From positions 2,294,001 through 2,358,000 of the forward strand of contig NC_089461.1 in assembly GCF_029203305.1 (NCBI RefSeq): 64,000 bases of DNA. Direction: 5' to 3'. Below, piece by piece: positions 15,744 to 24,638 of this stretch (position 1 is its first letter; the number at the start of each line of letters is the position of its first letter). Both the position numbers and the translations under genes were made by a program. Under the pieces are notes generated by a model. That model saw only the letters and a program-made list of their open reading frames with translations. It was not told the DNA's origin and did no database searches. The DNA is from Yamadazyma tenuis. Lineage: Eukaryota > Ascomycota > Pichiomycetes > Serinales > Debaryomycetaceae.

Positions 15744-18515
15744 CTACTCCCTATGCAGCAGATCCAGGATAATGCTGGCATCATCATCATCATCATCGTC
15801 AGTATCGACGTCAATTGTAACGTGTTTCCGTCTTTGAAAGTCCTTGATATGTGCTTTGTTCAAAGCATCACTGAACACCGCAAACGTTGATTTACGACGG
15901 GTGAGCTGAGGCAACTCAACATGGACATCGGAAGTTTCAATATTGGCCTCAGAGTCAAACGAAACATTTGCTGATGTTCTAACCGACGACGAAACTCCAA
16001 TTACATCTTCGATATCGTAAGTATTTCCTTCGGAGTATCTCAACGACACCAACTTTTTAATAGCCCTTTCTACCTTTGCGGAAATAGCATAAGGCAACGG
16101 CGAATCCCTCGAAGCCCGGAATAAGATCACGTTGGTGACATGTTCGTTCTCCATTCTGAAGAACACCCATATGATTCTTCTCACCAACTCGGCCACTGCT
16201 ATCAAGAAACTGGTTGCAGCCAGCTGTTGGATTTGATTACTAAAAAATGCATAGAATATCCACTGAAATCGCAACAAAACATCAGCAACCATGGCAAAGT
16301 AATAGTAGACTGGCTTCTCATAGAACAAGTTGTCACGAAGAAGCCAGTTCTTGGATTCAAACTGCAATAGCGACCAGTCCATCACAATGTCCCAAGTTGC
16401 CGTGTAGATGGAGTTGATCGAGGCCATTACAATAAATACGATTCGATTGGTATTGCTCTTGTTCAACCGGTAGACGCTCAACAACGCATAGTACACGGCT
16501 CCCACCGCATACTTGAGCATGTTTGCTAAATGGGGAAACCAGTCCCCTGTATCGGTATAACGTCTTACACATTGGAGAAACCTGAAAATACTGGGCAAGG
16601 CAGCAAAGAACCCCATTGATCTTGACTTAGATGACCCACAAACGTCATGAATGGCTCCCGAGTCATTGAGCATACCGTTCCAGTGATGGGAGTAAAGGCA
16701 GAAGAAAAATGAAATATTTCCCATCGTGTAGGTCAATGAGCACAAAAGATCACCTAGAAAAAAGTCTCTGAATTCAACAGGGTAAAATCCAGAGAACAAG
16801 ATTCTAAAAAGGGCCACCTGGAGCCACCGTCTAGCAGAAAGATAGAACTGGTTGAAAGGCCAGAAAAACACAACCAAACCAGTACCAAAGTATATCCAGG
16901 GCCAGTCTCGTCCAGGAAACTCGGCTCTCCAATAATCGTGCATGCTAAACCACATCAAAAGCGACATAAACCCGAAAAATGCTGCTGGAATCACCAAGTA
17001 CTGCTTGTAGTCCAAGGCAGTAGCAATATGAAACTCAAAAATGAACTTGTAGTTTATTTTGAACCGGTCAAATATGAGCATGTTTAAACCAAATAAGAGA
17101 AACATCATCGTTAGCAAGAAAAACCCACCCCATATCTGCAACATGAACCTTCCTTCAGGTAAAGTATCATCAAGGACCTTGCGTAGGCCAGTGTACAAAG
17201 CGAGAACAAACAACGGCAAACCAACTCCTAGAAACACCCCAGTAAAGAACGATTCTGGGTAGTACGACGACATTCTCACCTGGTTGTTGTTCAAGGCATA
17301 TGCTATGCTTTTGAACTTTTCCAAAGAGTGCTTTCTATCTGATGACTCAAGATGAAAGAACGAAATGTACAACTCTTCTGACTGATTTACCAATTTTTCC
17401 AAAAGATCACTTGTCATGAAATACGATTCTGTATCAATTTTTTTCACATATTCCACTGAAATCGACGACCCAGTCAGCTTGTCAAACTTCTTGGTGATCT
17501 TTCTGAACGCGGTACGGTTCATTTCCTTGTACGACTTCAATAAAACCAAAGACCTATAATGCTCTAACATGGCTTCTTTCAACTGCTTTCTTGCAACTTG
17601 GAAGGGCACAGAAAACTGTCTCTTAGTAGACTCGTAATCTCTTCTCTTCCTCTTGCGGGCCATCTCGGGGGTCTGCTGGACCTGAACTCCCGACAGGCGA
17701 GAGCCATCAGCCGAAAGAGAAAACTCATTCAAACTGTCTGAGTCCAAAGATGACACCTCCGACCGATCACCAGCTAATCCATTTCTGATTCGGTTTTCGA
17801 AGTAGTTGGCATCGACCTCGTGTGGTGTGGTATCAGTCATGGAGATATCTGAGCTGTTGGTAGATTTTTTGATTCTCTCCATAAACACTTTGGAAGGTAA
17901 GGAAGGCAAGTCAAACCGGTTTAAGTATGAAAAGGCACTCTTGGTGTGGTACGCCAATTCGTTCACTCTTTTATACACTGCTATCTCCCCCACATGCGTG
18001 GTTTGTAAGTTTTTCAACTGGGTTTGCTTCTGTCTGTTCATGATCATACGATGCTCCTTCAACTGATATAACTGGTCTTCCAAAATCAAGAACCGTTCGT
18101 ATACTTCTTGTTCTCTTTCCCGATAAAATGACTCTACTTTGTGATACTGACCAGAAAGCCATTCCTGGAATTCCCTCTTCGTGTCGTCTTTTTTCTGTTG
18201 ATTTATGGATGACTTTCCAGTAAATATCGTTGTCTTGAAGGAAACGGTACTGTTTTTATTAGGATCTTCGGGTGGTAGAGTTTGTTCTCGAAAAAATGAA
18301 GAGCTTTCATTGTGCCCATATCCACGTTTCTTTGAAGGGTCCAATGGTTGCAAAAGTGGTGTACGGTCATTTGTGTTTTTGCTCTTGTTGTTTTGCGGAG
18401 TATCGTCTTCTACATCTTTGACTTTTTTGATGATCTTTTTCCCCTTTTTGTAGTCTAAGTACTGGGGTTCCCACTCAGGGACTACTCCATTACTCAAAGA
18501 CTCGGCAAACTTCAT
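15744..18515 (-). CDS. SYG1: SPX-EXS membrane protein, SYG1/XPR1 family
   Basis: A 923-residue member of the Syg1/XPR1 family. XPR1 exports phosphate and binds inositol pyrophosphates through its SPX domain. The SPX domain spans about 1-370: MKFAESLSNGVVPEWEPQYLDYKKGKK at the start (shown in part: PEWEPQYLDYKK), then TKKFDKLTGSS near its end. Several membrane segments follow between about 425 and 740, with the EXS core carrying WDIVMDWSLL and NLFYEKPVYYYFA. The C-terminal 130 residues are cytosolic and end with a run of aspartates (DTDDDDDDDAS). Size is close to S. cerevisiae Syg1 (902). The gene is convergent with homocitrate synthase. Family assignment is secure; phosphate export is inferred from XPR1. 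Confidence 0.9.
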   Translation of the reverse strand: MKFAESLSNGVVPEWEPQYLDYKKGKKIIKKVKDVEDDTPQNNKSKNTNDRTPLLQPLDPSKKRGYGHNESSSFFREQTLPPEDPNKNSTVSFKTTIFTGKSSINQQKKDDTKREFQEWLSGQYHKVESFYREREQEVYERFLILEDQLYQLKEHRMIMNRQKQTQLKNLQTTHVGEIAVYKRVNELAYHTKSAFSYLNRFDLPSLPSKVFMERIKKSTNSSDISMTDTTPHEVDANYFENRIRNGLAGDRSEVSSLDSDSLNEFSLSADGSRLSGVQVQQTPEMARKRKRRDYESTKRQFSVPFQVARKQLKEAMLEHYRSLVLLKSYKEMNRTAFRKITKKFDKLTGSSISVEYVKKIDTESYFMTSDLLEKLVNQSEELYISFFHLESSDRKHSLEKFKSIAYALNNNQVRMSSYYPESFFTGVFLGVGLPLFVLALYTGLRKVLDDTLPEGRFMLQIWGGFFLLTMMFLLFGLNMLIFDRFKINYKFIFEFHIATALDYKQYLVIPAAFFGFMSLLMWFSMHDYWRAEFPGRDWPWIYFGTGLVVFFWPFNQFYLSARRWLQVALFRILFSGFYPVEFRDFFLGDLLCSLTYTMGNISFFFCLYSHHWNGMLNDSGAIHDVCGSSKSRSMGFFAALPSIFRFLQCVRRYTDTGDWFPHLANMLKYAVGAVYYALLSVYRLNKSNTNRIVFIVMASINSIYTATWDIVMDWSLLQFESKNWLLRDNLFYEKPVYYYFAMVADVLLRFQWIFYAFFSNQIQQLAATSFLIAVAELVRRIIWVFFRMENEHVTNVILFRASRDSPLPYAISAKVERAIKKLVSLRYSEGNTYDIEDVIGVSSSVRTSANVSFDSEANIETSDVHVELPQLTRRKSTFAVFSDALNKAHIKDFQRRKHVTIDVDTDDDDDDDASIILDLLHRE

Positions 18516-18641: not shown

Positions 18642-20768
18642 CTAACTCTCGTATCTAACATAAAGGGCATCGATAAAATGGCGGTGTTTGATTCCTGGAG
18701 GTTTAGCATCTCTAAATCCACCAATGGCTTCTTCAACAGACCACCCCAACCGTTCAATTAGGAAGCAACAGATTAGAAAACCGGTTCTATTAAATCCATA
18801 ATGACAATGCACCGCTATCAAAGGATCCTCTATTGTCTTCAGCTCCAAGATCTTATCGATAAGTTGAATGAACTTTCTGATGGAGCCAGGGTCGGGAACC
18901 ACCTTGGAAACGGTTGCACATTTGTAATAGGTGATGATTTTAAACGTCTCAGGATCATATGGTGGAATATCGGCAGAGATATCGACAATTGCAATAAGAT
19001 GGCCAGTAGGAAGCTTATATTGGGATGGAATCATGGACCTATCACCATAAAAAGCGTTTTCTAAGATGATAGGCGAGTGGTTTGCATCCCCCTCTCTGAG
19101 GGTTTTCATACCCAACAATGGAGAAATGTCTTTACCATGGTTTCTAGAAATATTAAGAGAGATTGGGTCAAGTCTCAGCCATTTCAACTCGTTCTTCAAT
19201 CCCCATTTGTCACCACTGATATCTGCTTTGACTCTTAACACCCAAGCGGGTGAGAGATGCAATCGTTCGGGAAACTTGTTCTCAATATGATCCAAGATTT
19301 TACCACTAATAAACTCTGGTTTCGACAATAACAAGCCATGGCCAGCATTCTTGATTTCTATCAAAGTACTAACCTTTCTCTGAAACACGTGCGACAACAT
19401 GTTGTCTATCTCAGTGATTTTCTGAGGTGGTGTCACTTTGTCATCAGTTCCGGCCACCAATACCGTTTTCTCATACACCCGGGTGTCAAACGGATTGTTA
19501 TTAAACCTCTTAATAGCTGCTACCAAGTCACTATATTTACACCTTTCAAACCCCTTTATGTACTTTAATATCACCTTGGTATCGACGTCTAAGTTCCACC
19601 TAAACTGACGTAATTTAATGTACAACGAGGTATGTGGAGGATAGAGTGAAGTATCTCCAATCTGTCTGAAAACACTTGAGCTTTCAAGCCCTTCAAGCCT
19701 GTCCCAGACTCTCATGAGATTAACAACGGACGGGAACTTAGTCATCCAGTTGGCAAATATCGATGTTTTGTGACTATTCTTCACTTGTTCATTGGTGTAA
19801 ATATCATCCTGAAACCCGGGACTCGTTAACAAAATCAACCCTTCAACCTTGCTCGAAGGCAATTTCTTTGCAACTCGTACTGATAAGTGGCAACCCATGG
19901 AGTGAGCTATTAAAACCACTTTTTTATTAGGAGGTATGGTTTGATTGATAAACTCAGTTATAATAACACTGATGTTGTTACTGGTGAAATCTCCATCTGC
20001 CATGGATGCCACAGACGTCGAAATTCTTTCTTGATCTTCTGGAGATATTTTCGTCAACCTGGCGCTTGCGGTGCTGAAGTCTGCCCTGGAATCACCAAAC
20101 CCTGGCAAGTCAAGTGACACAATCTCCAGACACTGCGACAACAACGCCATCAATGGCTCAAACTGTGACATCTGGCCGCCCATTCCATGGACAAACACCA
20201 ATATGGGCGACTCTTTCAACTCCTGCAGTATATCGACTGATTGGTTGTTTTCATTCTTCATGAAATTCGTCAACGGGTGGTCAATGTGCAACGTTTTTAA
20301 GTATACTTCATCAACAGATAAGCCCTGTTGCCGCGACAAGTCCACTCTTGTGACCCCGCTATACTTGGCCACCAACGCTGAGTCGTTGGGCTCTGCTTCC
20401 AAAACGTATTCTTCAAAGGGATTTGCCTTTTTTAGCAACACAATCCTTAGGTACTGCCAGAGCTTTTTGAAAACTGTGTTTGTTTGGGTGAATTGAGCGG
20501 TCGACAAATCCTGGAGCTTGCGGAATGACACCTGGACGTTTGTGGACAGAGACGCCTTGGGGCTTGAAAAGTTCAGTATTTCGACATGTTCACTGTCCTC
20601 ATTGTTCATATTAGTACTAATTAACTGAAGGTACTTGAAGTTTCGGAGTGCGAAAGTGGTGAGATAAGATGCGACGGCTGAAAATGACACCGGGTGAACA
20701 AAATAGGATGAAACGGTGCCAGTTGAAAAATACGGAAGAAATGAGGTCAGTAGGCAATTGGGAGGCAA
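18642..20768 (-). CDS. Fused alpha/beta-hydrolase and RNA-triphosphatase-like cysteine phosphatase
   Basis: Two enzymes in one 708-codon frame. The first half is an alpha/beta-hydrolase: oxyanion loop VFVHGMGGQ (about 193), SLDLPGFGDS, nucleophile elbow LIAHSMGCH (about 288), a late Asp in AGTDDKVTPP and the catalytic His in NAGHGLLLS. The C-terminal 170 residues form a cysteine phosphatase with P-loop VHCHYGFNRTG (Cys near 653). The flanks NRTGFLICCFLIERLGWS and DAKPPGI are those of metazoan mRNA-capping RNA triphosphatase and DUSP11, rather than ordinary tyrosine phosphatases. Yeasts cap RNA with an unrelated metal-dependent triphosphatase, so the role here is open. A second start at codon 54 (20609, MNNEDSEHVE) avoids a hydrophobic leader of uncertain reality. 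There is no stop or frame change between the domains. Confidence 0.85.
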   Translation of the reverse strand: MPPNCLLTSFLPYFSTGTVSSYFVHPVSFSAVASYLTTFALRNFKYLQLISTNMNNEDSEHVEILNFSSPKASLSTNVQVSFRKLQDLSTAQFTQTNTVFKKLWQYLRIVLLKKANPFEEYVLEAEPNDSALVAKYSGVTRVDLSRQQGLSVDEVYLKTLHIDHPLTNFMKNENNQSVDILQELKESPILVFVHGMGGQMSQFEPLMALLSQCLEIVSLDLPGFGDSRADFSTASARLTKISPEDQERISTSVASMADGDFTSNNISVIITEFINQTIPPNKKVVLIAHSMGCHLSVRVAKKLPSSKVEGLILLTSPGFQDDIYTNEQVKNSHKTSIFANWMTKFPSVVNLMRVWDRLEGLESSSVFRQIGDTSLYPPHTSLYIKLRQFRWNLDVDTKVILKYIKGFERCKYSDLVAAIKRFNNNPFDTRVYEKTVLVAGTDDKVTPPQKITEIDNMLSHVFQRKVSTLIEIKNAGHGLLLSKPEFISGKILDHIENKFPERLHLSPAWVLRVKADISGDKWGLKNELKWLRLDPISLNISRNHGKDISPLLGMKTLREGDANHSPIILENAFYGDRSMIPSQYKLPTGHLIAIVDISADIPPYDPETFKIITYYKCATVSKVVPDPGSIRKFIQLIDKILELKTIEDPLIAVHCHYGFNRTGFLICCFLIERLGWSVEEAIGGFRDAKPPGIKHRHFIDALYVRYES

Positions 20769-21149: not shown

Positions 21150-24100
21150 ATGTCACGTTATTCAAATGATAACGACTCGCTTGATGATTTGGATTCCACC
21201 TTGGACAAAGCGTTGAACAACGCTTCAAATAGTTTATTCAACAGTTCTCGTCACAGCTCTCAAGGGTCTATCGGAGGTATTCCTTTGACAAGTTTTGGTA
21301 ACAGTTCCAACGGACTCCACGAGAATCGTGTGGCCAGTGGCGGAGCTGGCAACTCCAACGGTACTCGATACGAAGAGTTTCACCATGACGATAGCTCTCC
21401 ACTAATAGGAAACCGATTCCAACAAACTAATAGGTCATTTGATTCGACGTCAAGCTTGGATATCAATCTCAACCGAGGATTCAGCCTCAAGAAGGTGATA
21501 CGGCAGGTGGTGAACTTCTTCAAGCTAGCCAAATTCGAGTTGAACCAAGAGAGAAATAAATTCAATAGCGAAGATGACAGCGAAGAACGGTTTATAACTC
21601 CTCGTAACAACAAGGTGAAAAATCAGTATCCCACTAATGCCATTTCCAACGCTAAGTATAACCCCATCACATTCATACCCATCATTTTGTACGAACAGTT
21701 CAAGTTTTTCTTCAACTTGTACTTCTTATTAGTGGCATTATCGCAGATTGTTCCTCAATTAAGAATTGGGTTTTTGAGTTCGTATATTGTGCCTTTGGCC
21801 TTCGTGTTGATGGTCACAATGATGAAGGAGGCAACTGATGACATATCCAGACGTAGAAGAGATATCGAGCAGAATAACGAATTATACGAAGTTTTGAACA
21901 GGTCCGGCTCAACTGCATTGACAAACGAAACCAAACTGATACCCTCGAAGAACTTACGAGTTGGCGACTTAGTGAAGATTTACAAGAATAAGCGGATTCC
22001 TGCCGATATAATACTTTTACAGTCGAGTGATCAAGAAGGAAACGGAGAAGCATTTATAAAAACTGATCAATTAGACGGGGAGACCGACTGGAAGTTGAGA
22101 ATAGCTCCAAACTTGACACAGCACACTAACAGTATCTCAGACTTGATAGACGACTTCTCCCTTATTATCAGTAAGCCTACCAAATCAATTCACCATTTCA
22201 ATGGGAAGCTTGTGTACCATCCCAACGGGTACAACAATTCTAACTCTGAACAACTTCCCTTGACAATAGATCAAACAATGTGGGCTAACACAGTGTTAGC
22301 AACAGGGTCTGCTATTGGGATTGTGGTTTATACCGGCATTGAGACCAGACAGCTGTTGAACACCACCAAGACAGGGGTTAAAACTGGTTTACTTGAACTT
22401 GAAATCAACAAATTGGCTAAAATTTTGTGTGTTACAGTATTTTTGTTATCAGCCTCCTTGGTGTTTGCCAAAGGATGGCCCTTGAAAAAAACCTGGTACA
22501 TCGATATATTAAGATATTTGATTTTGTTTTCGACGATTATTCCCGTTTCTTTGAGAGTCAACTTGGACTTGGCCAAGTCTGTTTATGCTTCTCAGATTCA
22601 TAAGGACAAGGAAATCAACAACACCATTGTCAGAACATCTACCATTCCAGAAGACCTTGGTAGAATAGAATATTTATTGAGTGACAAGACAGGAACTTTA
22701 ACTCAGAACGATATGGAGTTGAAGAAACTCCACTTGGGAACTGTTAGTTACGCAGGTGATACATTGGATATGGTCAGTGAGTATATCAACAACAGCTTGA
22801 ATAACATGAGGGCCTCAAACAATCTAATCACTTCTAGCAACATGAAGAAAAGAGACTTGAGTAACAAAGTCTACGACTTGGTGTTGACATTAGCACTTTG
22901 TCACAATGTTACCCCCACGCATGACGAGGAATCGAATATCGATGCCGATGAAGTAACATACCAAGCTGCTTCTCCTGACGAAATTGCCATTATCAAATTC
23001 ACCGAAAGTGTAGGCTTGAAGTTGATACAAAGAGATAGAACGTCGATGACATTGTTGCATTTGAAGCTGAACCAAACATTCAAGTTTGACATCTTGTACA
23101 TTTTTCCATTCAGCAGTGAGACTAAGAGAATGGGGATTGTTGTAAAGGACTTAACCAAGGATGAAGTATTTTTCATGGAAAAGGGTGCTGATTCTGTTAT
23201 GATGAGCATCGTTAGTCACAGCGATTGGCTTGAAGAAGAAACTAGCAACATGGCAAGAGAAGGCTTGAGAACGTTGGTTATTGGAAAAAAGAAGATGAGT
23301 GAAAAGCTTTTGAAGGATTTCGAGTCCAATTACAAAGATGCCAGTTTGGCTATGCATGACAGAGAGTCATCGATGCAACAGGTGGTAGTGAACTACTTGG
23401 AGCAGGAGTTGGAGTTATTGGGGTTGACCGGTGTTGAAGATAAGTTACAGAAGAATGTCAAATCGTCGATCGAGCTATTGAGAAACGCCGGAATTAAAAT
23501 CTGGATGTTGACCGGTGATAAAGTAGAAACCGCCAAATGTGTTTCTATTAGTTGTAGGTTGATTACAAGAGGTCAATACATTCATCAGATCACCAAAATT
23601 AACCACCCGGACCTCGCATTGAACCATTTGGAGATGTTAAAGATCAATTTGAATTCGGTGTTGCTAATCGATGGGGAGAGTTTGTTGACATACATGAAAC
23701 ATTTCCCGGAAGAATTCTTCAGACTTGCTATTCAATTGCCTACTGTAATTGCCTGTAGATGTTCTCCACAACAGAAGGCTGATGTCGCCAAAATCATCAA
23801 AGAAATTACTGGAAAGAGAATCTGCTGTATCGGGGATGGGGGGAATGACGTCAGTATGATCCAGGTAGCCGATGTGGGGGTGGGAATTGTTGGAAAAGAA
23901 GGAAAACAGGCGTCGTTGGCGGCAGACTTTAGTATCGACCAGTTCTATTATCTTTGCAAATTGTTATTATGGCATGGCAGAAACTCGTACAAAAGATCAT
24001 CCAAGCTCGGCCAGTTTATCATGCATAGAGGTCTCATTATATCGGTATGCCAGGCGGTGTACTCGATCTGCTCCGACTTTGAGCCATTGGCCTTGTACCA

Positions 24101-24638
24101 AGGATTTTTGATGGTCGGGTATGCCACCATCTATACGATGATGCCGGTGTTCTCGTTGACACTTGACTGTGATGTCGATGAAAACCTCACCAAGTTGTAT
24201 CCTGAACTCTACAAGGAATTGACCCTCGGCCGGTCTTTGAGCTACAAAAACTTCATTATCTGGTGCATAATCTCACTTTACCAGGGATGTGTAATCCAGC
24301 TCTTGGGTCAGAAATTCCAAGGAGTAGAGCTAGATACCTTCACCACCATGGTGTCGCTTTCATTCACAGCACTCATCTTCAACGAATTGATCATGGTGGG
24401 TCTCCAAATTAATCGGTGGAACATGATTATGATCATCACCGTGACGGTAACAGTTGTTATCTACGTGACCCTGGTGCCATTCTTACCCGACTACTTTAAC
24501 CTCGACTATATGTCGTCATTCTCCTTTATATGGCAGTGTGTGGTGATTTTGGTGATAAGTTTGTTCCCGGTATTTTTGTTCCAAACCATCAACCGGAGAT
24601 TGAGACCCCCTAGTTACGCCAAAGTGCAACAGGACTAA
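21150..24638 (+). CDS. NEO1: P4-type ATPase Neo1 (phospholipid flippase)
   Basis: A 1162-residue P4-ATPase that keeps phosphatidylethanolamine and phosphatidylserine on the cytosolic leaflet in Golgi and endosomes. It has a disordered Ser/Asn-rich N-terminus of about 110 residues, PNGL-type entry into the first helices (FKFFFNLYFLLVALSQIVPQLRIGF), the actuator loop LDGETDWKLR, the phosphorylation site SDKTGTLTQND (Asp512), the nucleotide-domain FSSETKRMGIVV, the hinge MLTGDKVETA and the P-domain GDGGNDVSMIQ. The last membrane segments end at about 1145. VPQLRIGFLSSYIVPLAFVL and the lack of a Cdc50-type long tail point to the Neo1/ATP9 branch rather than Drs2 or Dnf. S. cerevisiae Neo1 has 1151 residues. 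Confidence 0.94.
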   Translation: MSRYSNDNDSLDDLDSTLDKALNNASNSLFNSSRHSSQGSIGGIPLTSFGNSSNGLHENRVASGGAGNSNGTRYEEFHHDDSSPLIGNRFQQTNRSFDSTSSLDINLNRGFSLKKVIRQVVNFFKLAKFELNQERNKFNSEDDSEERFITPRNNKVKNQYPTNAISNAKYNPITFIPIILYEQFKFFFNLYFLLVALSQIVPQLRIGFLSSYIVPLAFVLMVTMMKEATDDISRRRRDIEQNNELYEVLNRSGSTALTNETKLIPSKNLRVGDLVKIYKNKRIPADIILLQSSDQEGNGEAFIKTDQLDGETDWKLRIAPNLTQHTNSISDLIDDFSLIISKPTKSIHHFNGKLVYHPNGYNNSNSEQLPLTIDQTMWANTVLATGSAIGIVVYTGIETRQLLNTTKTGVKTGLLELEINKLAKILCVTVFLLSASLVFAKGWPLKKTWYIDILRYLILFSTIIPVSLRVNLDLAKSVYASQIHKDKEINNTIVRTSTIPEDLGRIEYLLSDKTGTLTQNDMELKKLHLGTVSYAGDTLDMVSEYINNSLNNMRASNNLITSSNMKKRDLSNKVYDLVLTLALCHNVTPTHDEESNIDADEVTYQAASPDEIAIIKFTESVGLKLIQRDRTSMTLLHLKLNQTFKFDILYIFPFSSETKRMGIVVKDLTKDEVFFMEKGADSVMMSIVSHSDWLEEETSNMAREGLRTLVIGKKKMSEKLLKDFESNYKDASLAMHDRESSMQQVVVNYLEQELELLGLTGVEDKLQKNVKSSIELLRNAGIKIWMLTGDKVETAKCVSISCRLITRGQYIHQITKINHPDLALNHLEMLKINLNSVLLIDGESLLTYMKHFPEEFFRLAIQLPTVIACRCSPQQKADVAKIIKEITGKRICCIGDGGNDVSMIQVADVGVGIVGKEGKQASLAADFSIDQFYYLCKLLLWHGRNSYKRSSKLGQFIMHRGLIISVCQAVYSICSDFEPLALYQGFLMVGYATIYTMMPVFSLTLDCDVDENLTKLYPELYKELTLGRSLSYKNFIIWCIISLYQGCVIQLLGQKFQGVELDTFTTMVSLSFTALIFNELIMVGLQINRWNMIMIITVTVTVVIYVTLVPFLPDYFNLDYMSSFSFIWQCVVILVISLFPVFLFQTINRRLRPPSYAKVQQD

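What the first reader, a model, noticed from the sequence alone, without database searches (positions are those of the whole stretch)
18642..20768. Alpha/beta-hydrolase fused to a metazoan-type RNA 5'-triphosphatase-like domain in a yeast
One uninterrupted frame joins a complete hydrolase (HGMGG, AHSMG, late Asp and His) to a cysteine phosphatase whose P-loop HCHYGFNRTG and flank NRTGFLICCFLIERL resemble the capping-enzyme triphosphatase and DUSP11. Budding yeasts cap RNA with an unrelated metal-dependent triphosphatase, so a DUSP11-like domain here, tied to a lipase/esterase-like hydrolase, suggests RNA 5'-end or phosphoinositide/lipid chemistry not described for these yeasts as far as I know. 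Similar fusions may be annotated elsewhere in fungi.
Basis: partly seen in the sequence, partly recalled or inferred. Interest (0 to 1): 0.78.

Follow-up and report, generated by a model that had tools for sequence, protein, structure and literature searches.

The report
Fungal lipase–RNA-phosphatase-like fusion enzyme
This yeast gene makes one protein that joins a lipase-like enzyme to a relative of the animal enzymes that trim phosphates from RNA ends; the same join turns up in many groups of fungi, and what the phosphatase half acts on is not known.

Summary
Window 18642-20609 (-) is one intron-less 655-aa frame: an alpha/beta-hydrolase with Ser-Asp-His in place, then a cysteine phosphatase. 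By profile and fold the phosphatase half belongs with the RNA 5'-phosphatases (capping-enzyme RNA triphosphatase 121-132 bits, baculovirus BVP 106, DUSP11 103), not with ordinary dual-specificity phosphatases (DUSP23 57, CDC14 45, PTEN 41). The genome has a Cet1-type triphosphatase and a separate guanylyltransferase, so the domain looks extra to capping.

Two corrections. It is no yeast oddity: 272 of 296 collected proteins carry at least half of the hydrolase as well as the phosphatase, from Ascomycota to chytrids. The fusion is also in print: PMC10158824 notes a DSPc domain on LDH1 orthologues of Yarrowia and Arthrobotrys. My searches found no report of the RNA-phosphatase kinship.

The family has its own active site: HCHYGxN in 295 of 295 P-loops (HCTHG in the references) and Lys where those have His or Gln. 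Best guess: a phosphatase without general acid acting on phosphoanhydrides, most likely RNA 5'-tri/diphosphates, tied to an Ldh1-type esterase. The substrate is unproven.

The parts
18642..20609 (-). Whole fusion gene, 655 aa from the first ATG to TAG, one open frame, single copy
19260..20360 (-). Alpha/beta-hydrolase domain, residues about 84-450 (Ldh1-like by source names and literature)
19899..19901 (-). Codon of the presumed nucleophile S237 (TCC) in AHSMG
   Evidence: S in 258 of 284 aligned, 16 of them gapped there
19440..19442 (-). Codon of D390, presumed triad acid
   Evidence: D in 274 of 284
19338..19340 (-). Codon of H424, presumed triad base
   Evidence: H in 278 of 284
19179..19208 (-). 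Junction motif KWGLKNELKW (468-477), family hallmark; W477 is shared with the RNA 5'-phosphatases
   Evidence: K476 295 of 296, W477 293 of 296
18651..19172 (-). Cysteine phosphatase domain of the RNA 5'-phosphatase group, residues about 480-653
18981..18983 (-). Codon of D543, aligned with Mce1 Asp66
   Evidence: D in 296 of 296; numbering
18894..18908 (-). WPD-loop equivalent SKVVP (568-572); no conserved acid at 573; K569 where the capping enzyme and DUSP11 have His and BVP has Gln
18780..18809 (-). P-loop HCHYGFNRTG (601-610), nucleophile C602, R608

Best explanation
A two-headed enzyme conserved widely in Fungi. The N-terminal half is a Ser-Asp-His esterase/lipase of the Ldh1 kind. The C-terminal half is a cysteine phosphatase of the same stock as the capping-enzyme RNA triphosphatase, DUSP11/PIR-1 and BVP. 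C602 attacks the terminal phosphate held by the P-loop and R608, forms a phosphocysteine, and water releases phosphate. With no conserved Asp/Glu general acid in the WPD-loop equivalent, the leaving group must be a good one, so the substrate is probably a phosphoanhydride; by kinship the likeliest is the 5'-tri- or diphosphate of uncapped RNA in the cytosol, as with DUSP11. Shown here: the fused frame, its homology, the conserved catalytic residues, its presence in many fungi, a confident compact model. Inferred: enzymatic activity, absence of a general acid as a functional fact, RNA as substrate, cytosolic or droplet-surface location, and that the two halves act together.
Confidence: 0.45

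Rival explanations
1. The phosphatase half is a small-molecule phosphoanhydride phosphatase, for example for inositol pyrophosphates (as Siw14/PFA-DSP1) or nucleotides, using a remodelled RNA-phosphatase pocket.
For: Siw14/PFA-DSP enzymes also lack the WPD acid and cleave PP-InsPs (PMC9038691, passages). K569 (296 of 296) and HCHYG give the pocket its own chemistry. 8 of 20 A3 members match PTPlike_phytase at E<=0.01, best 1.1e-8.
Against: Sequence and fold place it with RNA 5'-phosphatases.
Confidence: 0.25
2. It is a lipid-phosphate or phosphoinositide phosphatase coupled to the esterase, so that one protein removes acyl chains and phosphate from the same lipid at droplets or the ER.
For: [quoted passage not shown] 33 of 246 relatives with a testable N-terminal stretch show a TM-like segment there. 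PTEN does match, weakly (41 bits).
Against: About 60 bits lie between PTEN and the lowest RNA 5'-phosphatase. The window protein has no TM-like N-terminus and no unusual amphipathic segment there (380 of 2000 shuffles as high).
Confidence: 0.15
3. It is an ordinary protein dual-specificity phosphatase fused by accident, or a chimeric gene model.
For: Pfam calls the domain only DSPc.
Against: One uninterrupted frame; 272 of 296 proteins with the phosphatase and at least half of the hydrolase profile, hydrolase first in each of the 284 with any hydrolase match. None of the 8 other DSP/PTP frames of the genome has N before the P-loop Arg.
Confidence: 0.04

Closest known systems
Metazoan/plant mRNA-capping enzyme, RNA triphosphatase domain (Mce1/RNGTT; PDB 1i9s, 2c46)
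   Same: Best sequence match (121-132 bits); W, K, D66-equivalent, Y, YxK, P and NRTG shared; PPGI and RY near the end
   Different: HCTHG against HCHYG; His94 against K569; joined to a guanylyltransferase rather than to a hydrolase
DUSP11/PIR-1 (4jmj) and baculovirus RNA 5'-phosphatase (1yn9)
   Different: No PPGI in the aligned segments; THG after the nucleophile; not fused to a hydrolase (recalled)
S. cerevisiae Ldh1 (YBR204C) and its fungal orthologues with an added DSPc domain
   Same: Orthologues in Yarrowia (Q6CEG0) and Arthrobotrys (G1XEC8) have this architecture (PMC10158824, section 3.9); some sources name relatives 'Lipid droplet hydrolase 1'
   Different: S. cerevisiae Ldh1 has no DSPc half in that paper, which calls the domain DSPc only. 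I did not align Ldh1, Q6CEG0 or G1XEC8 myself
DUSP23, CDC14, PTEN, PRL
   Same: PTP fold and an HCxxGxxR loop
   Different: 57 bits or less against 103-132 for the RNA 5'-phosphatases

Membership tests
RNA 5'-phosphatases of the cysteine type (capping RTPase, DUSP11, BVP) | Sequence nearest this group and not other DSPs | tested here: met
   103-132 bits against 57 or less for any other PDB chain
RNA 5'-phosphatases of the cysteine type (capping RTPase, DUSP11, BVP) | HCxxGxNRTG loop with Asn before Arg | tested here: met
   N607 in 295 of 295 loops; 0 of 8 other DSP/PTP frames of the genome
RNA 5'-phosphatases of the cysteine type (capping RTPase, DUSP11, BVP) | Thr-His after the Cys (HCTHG), as in the three references | tested here: not met
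   His-Tyr in 295 of 295 loops; whether this feature is needed for the activity is unknown, so I call it a divergent relative and not a proven RNA phosphatase
RNA 5'-phosphatases of the cysteine type (capping RTPase, DUSP11, BVP) | No conserved Asp/Glu general acid in the WPD-loop equivalent | tested here: met
   D or E at 573 in 127 of 296; class statement PMC9038691; judged by alignment only
RNA 5'-phosphatases of the cysteine type (capping RTPase, DUSP11, BVP) | Hydrolyses RNA 5'-triphosphate | not testable with these tools
   Needs purified protein
mRNA-capping enzyme (bifunctional) | Guanylyltransferase domain in the same chain | tested here: not met
   The one GTase match lies on another contig; none in this frame
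Ldh1 orthologues | Alpha/beta-hydrolase with GxSxG-type motif and Ser-Asp-His | tested here: met
   triad in 249 of the 260 proteins with letters at all three places. The window reads AHSMG
Ldh1 orthologues | Orthology with YBR204C and droplet location | not tested
   Rests on source names and PMC10158824

The most novel reading that the evidence does not exclude
Fungi, thought to have only metal-dependent RNA triphosphatases for capping, kept an ancient cysteine-type RNA 5'-phosphatase as a fusion with a lipid-droplet esterase: a fungal counterpart of DUSP11/PIR-1 that processes uncapped 5'-ppp RNAs (Pol III or viral) at lipid surfaces, lost in the S. cerevisiae lineage.
Probability: 0.25. 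Interest if true: 0.8.

Novelty: new variant of a known kind. Interest (0 to 1): 0.55.

Why it matters
Fungi are described as capping RNA with metal-dependent triphosphatases while animals and plants use the cysteine type (PMC2904801, passages). A widespread fungal protein with a cysteine-type domain of that stock, with its own active-site signature and more strongly conserved than its lipase partner, is a clear and easily tested gap: either fungi have an overlooked RNA 5'-end enzyme, or this phosphatase group has a second, unknown substrate class linked to lipid metabolism. It would also change how 'Lipid droplet hydrolase 1' entries in fungi are annotated.

Tried and rejected
Yeast-only curiosity: rejected. 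Ordinary DSP: disfavoured. Viral source: a scan of viral contigs with the phosphatase half matched 2 stretches by pattern, none confirmed; in the viral structure library the nearest row is an iridovirus capping enzyme. Prokaryote source: a scan of genome contigs matched 27 stretches by pattern, none confirmed. Both scans rest on short peptide patterns, so absence is not proved. NCBIfam gave matches far under the curated cut-offs. N-terminal amphipathic anchor in the window protein: not supported. The VIA search with the whole model was filled by hydrolases, so the phosphatase was refolded alone. The relation of the active sites in space was not measured; no coordinate file was in the box.

Trees. 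With 8 other phosphatase frames of the genome as outgroup, family plus capping enzyme plus DUSP11 fall on one side (97/91), but the two references nest inside the family beside P0171, and the tool warns of long branches. Without that outgroup, the three references form one side of a 100/99 branch; that tree is unrooted in substance, so it cannot say whether the known enzymes are sisters of the family or arose within it.

Literature: ten searches of an open-licence library; six returned no paper at all because all or most terms were required, so they are weak evidence of absence. Of the others, 19 gave PMC10158824; for 31 I saw passages of three papers and otherwise the listing; for 32 passages of two and otherwise the listing; for 77 the listing only. 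Seen as passages: PMC9038691, PMC2904801, PMC12058148, PMC11878206, PMC4882453; PMC10158824 as passages plus section 3.9 whole. Changela 2001 and Sankhala 2014 are not held; that Mce1 Asp66 matters is recalled.

Full report
What is there. The reverse-strand frame at 18642-20768 is real; the first ATG gives 655 aa ending at 18642. Six CTG codons occur; the nearest named relatives are Scheffersomyces, Spathaspora and Candida yeasts, so I read CTG as Ser (inference); S237 is TCC and C602 TGT, so those two do not depend on it. Pfam finds Abhydrolase_6 and DSPc, both above cut-off. The gene is single-copy in its 10.9-Mb genome.

The fusion is conserved and old within Fungi. One search gave 126 proteins with the window's own (120 listed); search 2, whose length limits exclude most full-length yeast fusions, gave 71; search 3, with a profile of 11 divergent proteins, gave 1598, of which the best 120 were listed. 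Two searches scored only the roughly 8000 candidates that share most words. I examined the 296 distinct proteins listed, the window's own included. All 296 match the phosphatase profile and 284 the hydrolase profile; 272 cover at least half of the hydrolase profile and 255 at least 80%, so some of the rest are fragments or truncated gene models; 12 have no hydrolase match. Hydrolase precedes phosphatase in each of the 284 when best domains are compared; a first pass with weak secondary hits had flagged four. Named sources run from Candida, Pichia, Lipomyces and many filamentous ascomycetes to Mortierella, Rhizophagus, Lichtheimia, Powellomyces (Chytridiomycota) and Anaeromyces (Neocallimastigomycota). 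Non-fungal names are Plasmodiophora brassicae (Rhizaria; two stand-alone copies) and one beetle record, Zophobas morio. Other phyla are assigned from my own knowledge. Many of the 296 have no source name.

A shared and a private signature. W477, K502, D543, Y551, K563, P572 and the NRTG of the P-loop are the same in capping enzyme, DUSP11 and BVP. D543 aligns with Mce1 residue 66, C602 with 126 and R608 with 132 (numbering). Two features are private: His-Tyr after the Cys in 295 of 295 loops (Thr-His in the references; the DUSP11 chain is a Cys-to-Ser form), and K569 in 296 of 296 where the references have His, His and Gln. R608 is Arg in 294 of 295 loops, Ser in P0054. Position 573 is D or E in only 127 of 296, so I see no conserved acid in the WPD-loop equivalent. 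PMC9038691 lists MCE1, BVP, PIR1, Siw14, PTEN and CDC25 as enzymes without that motif. I infer a substrate with a good leaving group, that is a phosphoanhydride; PTEN and CDC25 show that the inference is not strict.

Capping in this genome. A Cet1-type triphosphatase (PF02940, 210 bits) and a separate guanylyltransferase (PF01331, 181 bits) are present, and of the nine DSPc-matching frames listed only this one has Asn before the P-loop Arg. That the domain is not needed for ordinary capping is inference from gene content.

Geometry. The whole-chain model has pLDDT 90.2 and pTM 0.89, which suggests a fixed packing of the two domains. I had no coordinates and cannot say whether the active sites face each other.

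Verdict. Kinship with the RNA 5'-phosphatases: about 0.95. RNA as the substrate: about 0.45. The architecture is known in print as LDH1 plus DSPc; the RNA-phosphatase kinship, the private signature and the breadth in fungi I did not find described in the searches named in Tried and rejected, several of which were narrow.

Noticed in passing
P0171 (Zophobas morio LOC135120411): The only animal name among the 71 hits; it carries both halves and, with the references as root, branches first in the family (support 90/76 for the rest). Contamination by an early-diverging fungus or protist, or transfer, is not resolved.
   Followed up: partly
P0175, P0185 (Plasmodiophora brassicae), P0184, P0186 (unnamed): Phosphatase without hydrolase match; P0184 and P0186 carry a hydrophobic stretch after the phosphatase that could be a membrane anchor (by eye). 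The subfamily may predate Fungi.
   Followed up: partly
P0051, P0090, P0094, P0106, P0107: Leu at the hydrolase nucleophile (GHLMG); probably CTG codons translated by the standard code, in which case the catalytic Ser itself is encoded by the reassigned codon. DNA not checked.
   Followed up: no
P0054: P-loop Arg replaced by Ser (HCHYGFNSTG) in an otherwise ordinary relative; error or lost activity not examined.
   Followed up: no
window 15744-18515 (-) and 21150-24638 (+): Neighbours: an SPX-EXS protein (Syg1/Xpr1-like) and a phospholipid-translocating P-type ATPase (Neo1-like) (gene names recalled). SPX domains bind inositol pyrophosphates (recalled); this may be coincidence.
   Followed up: partly
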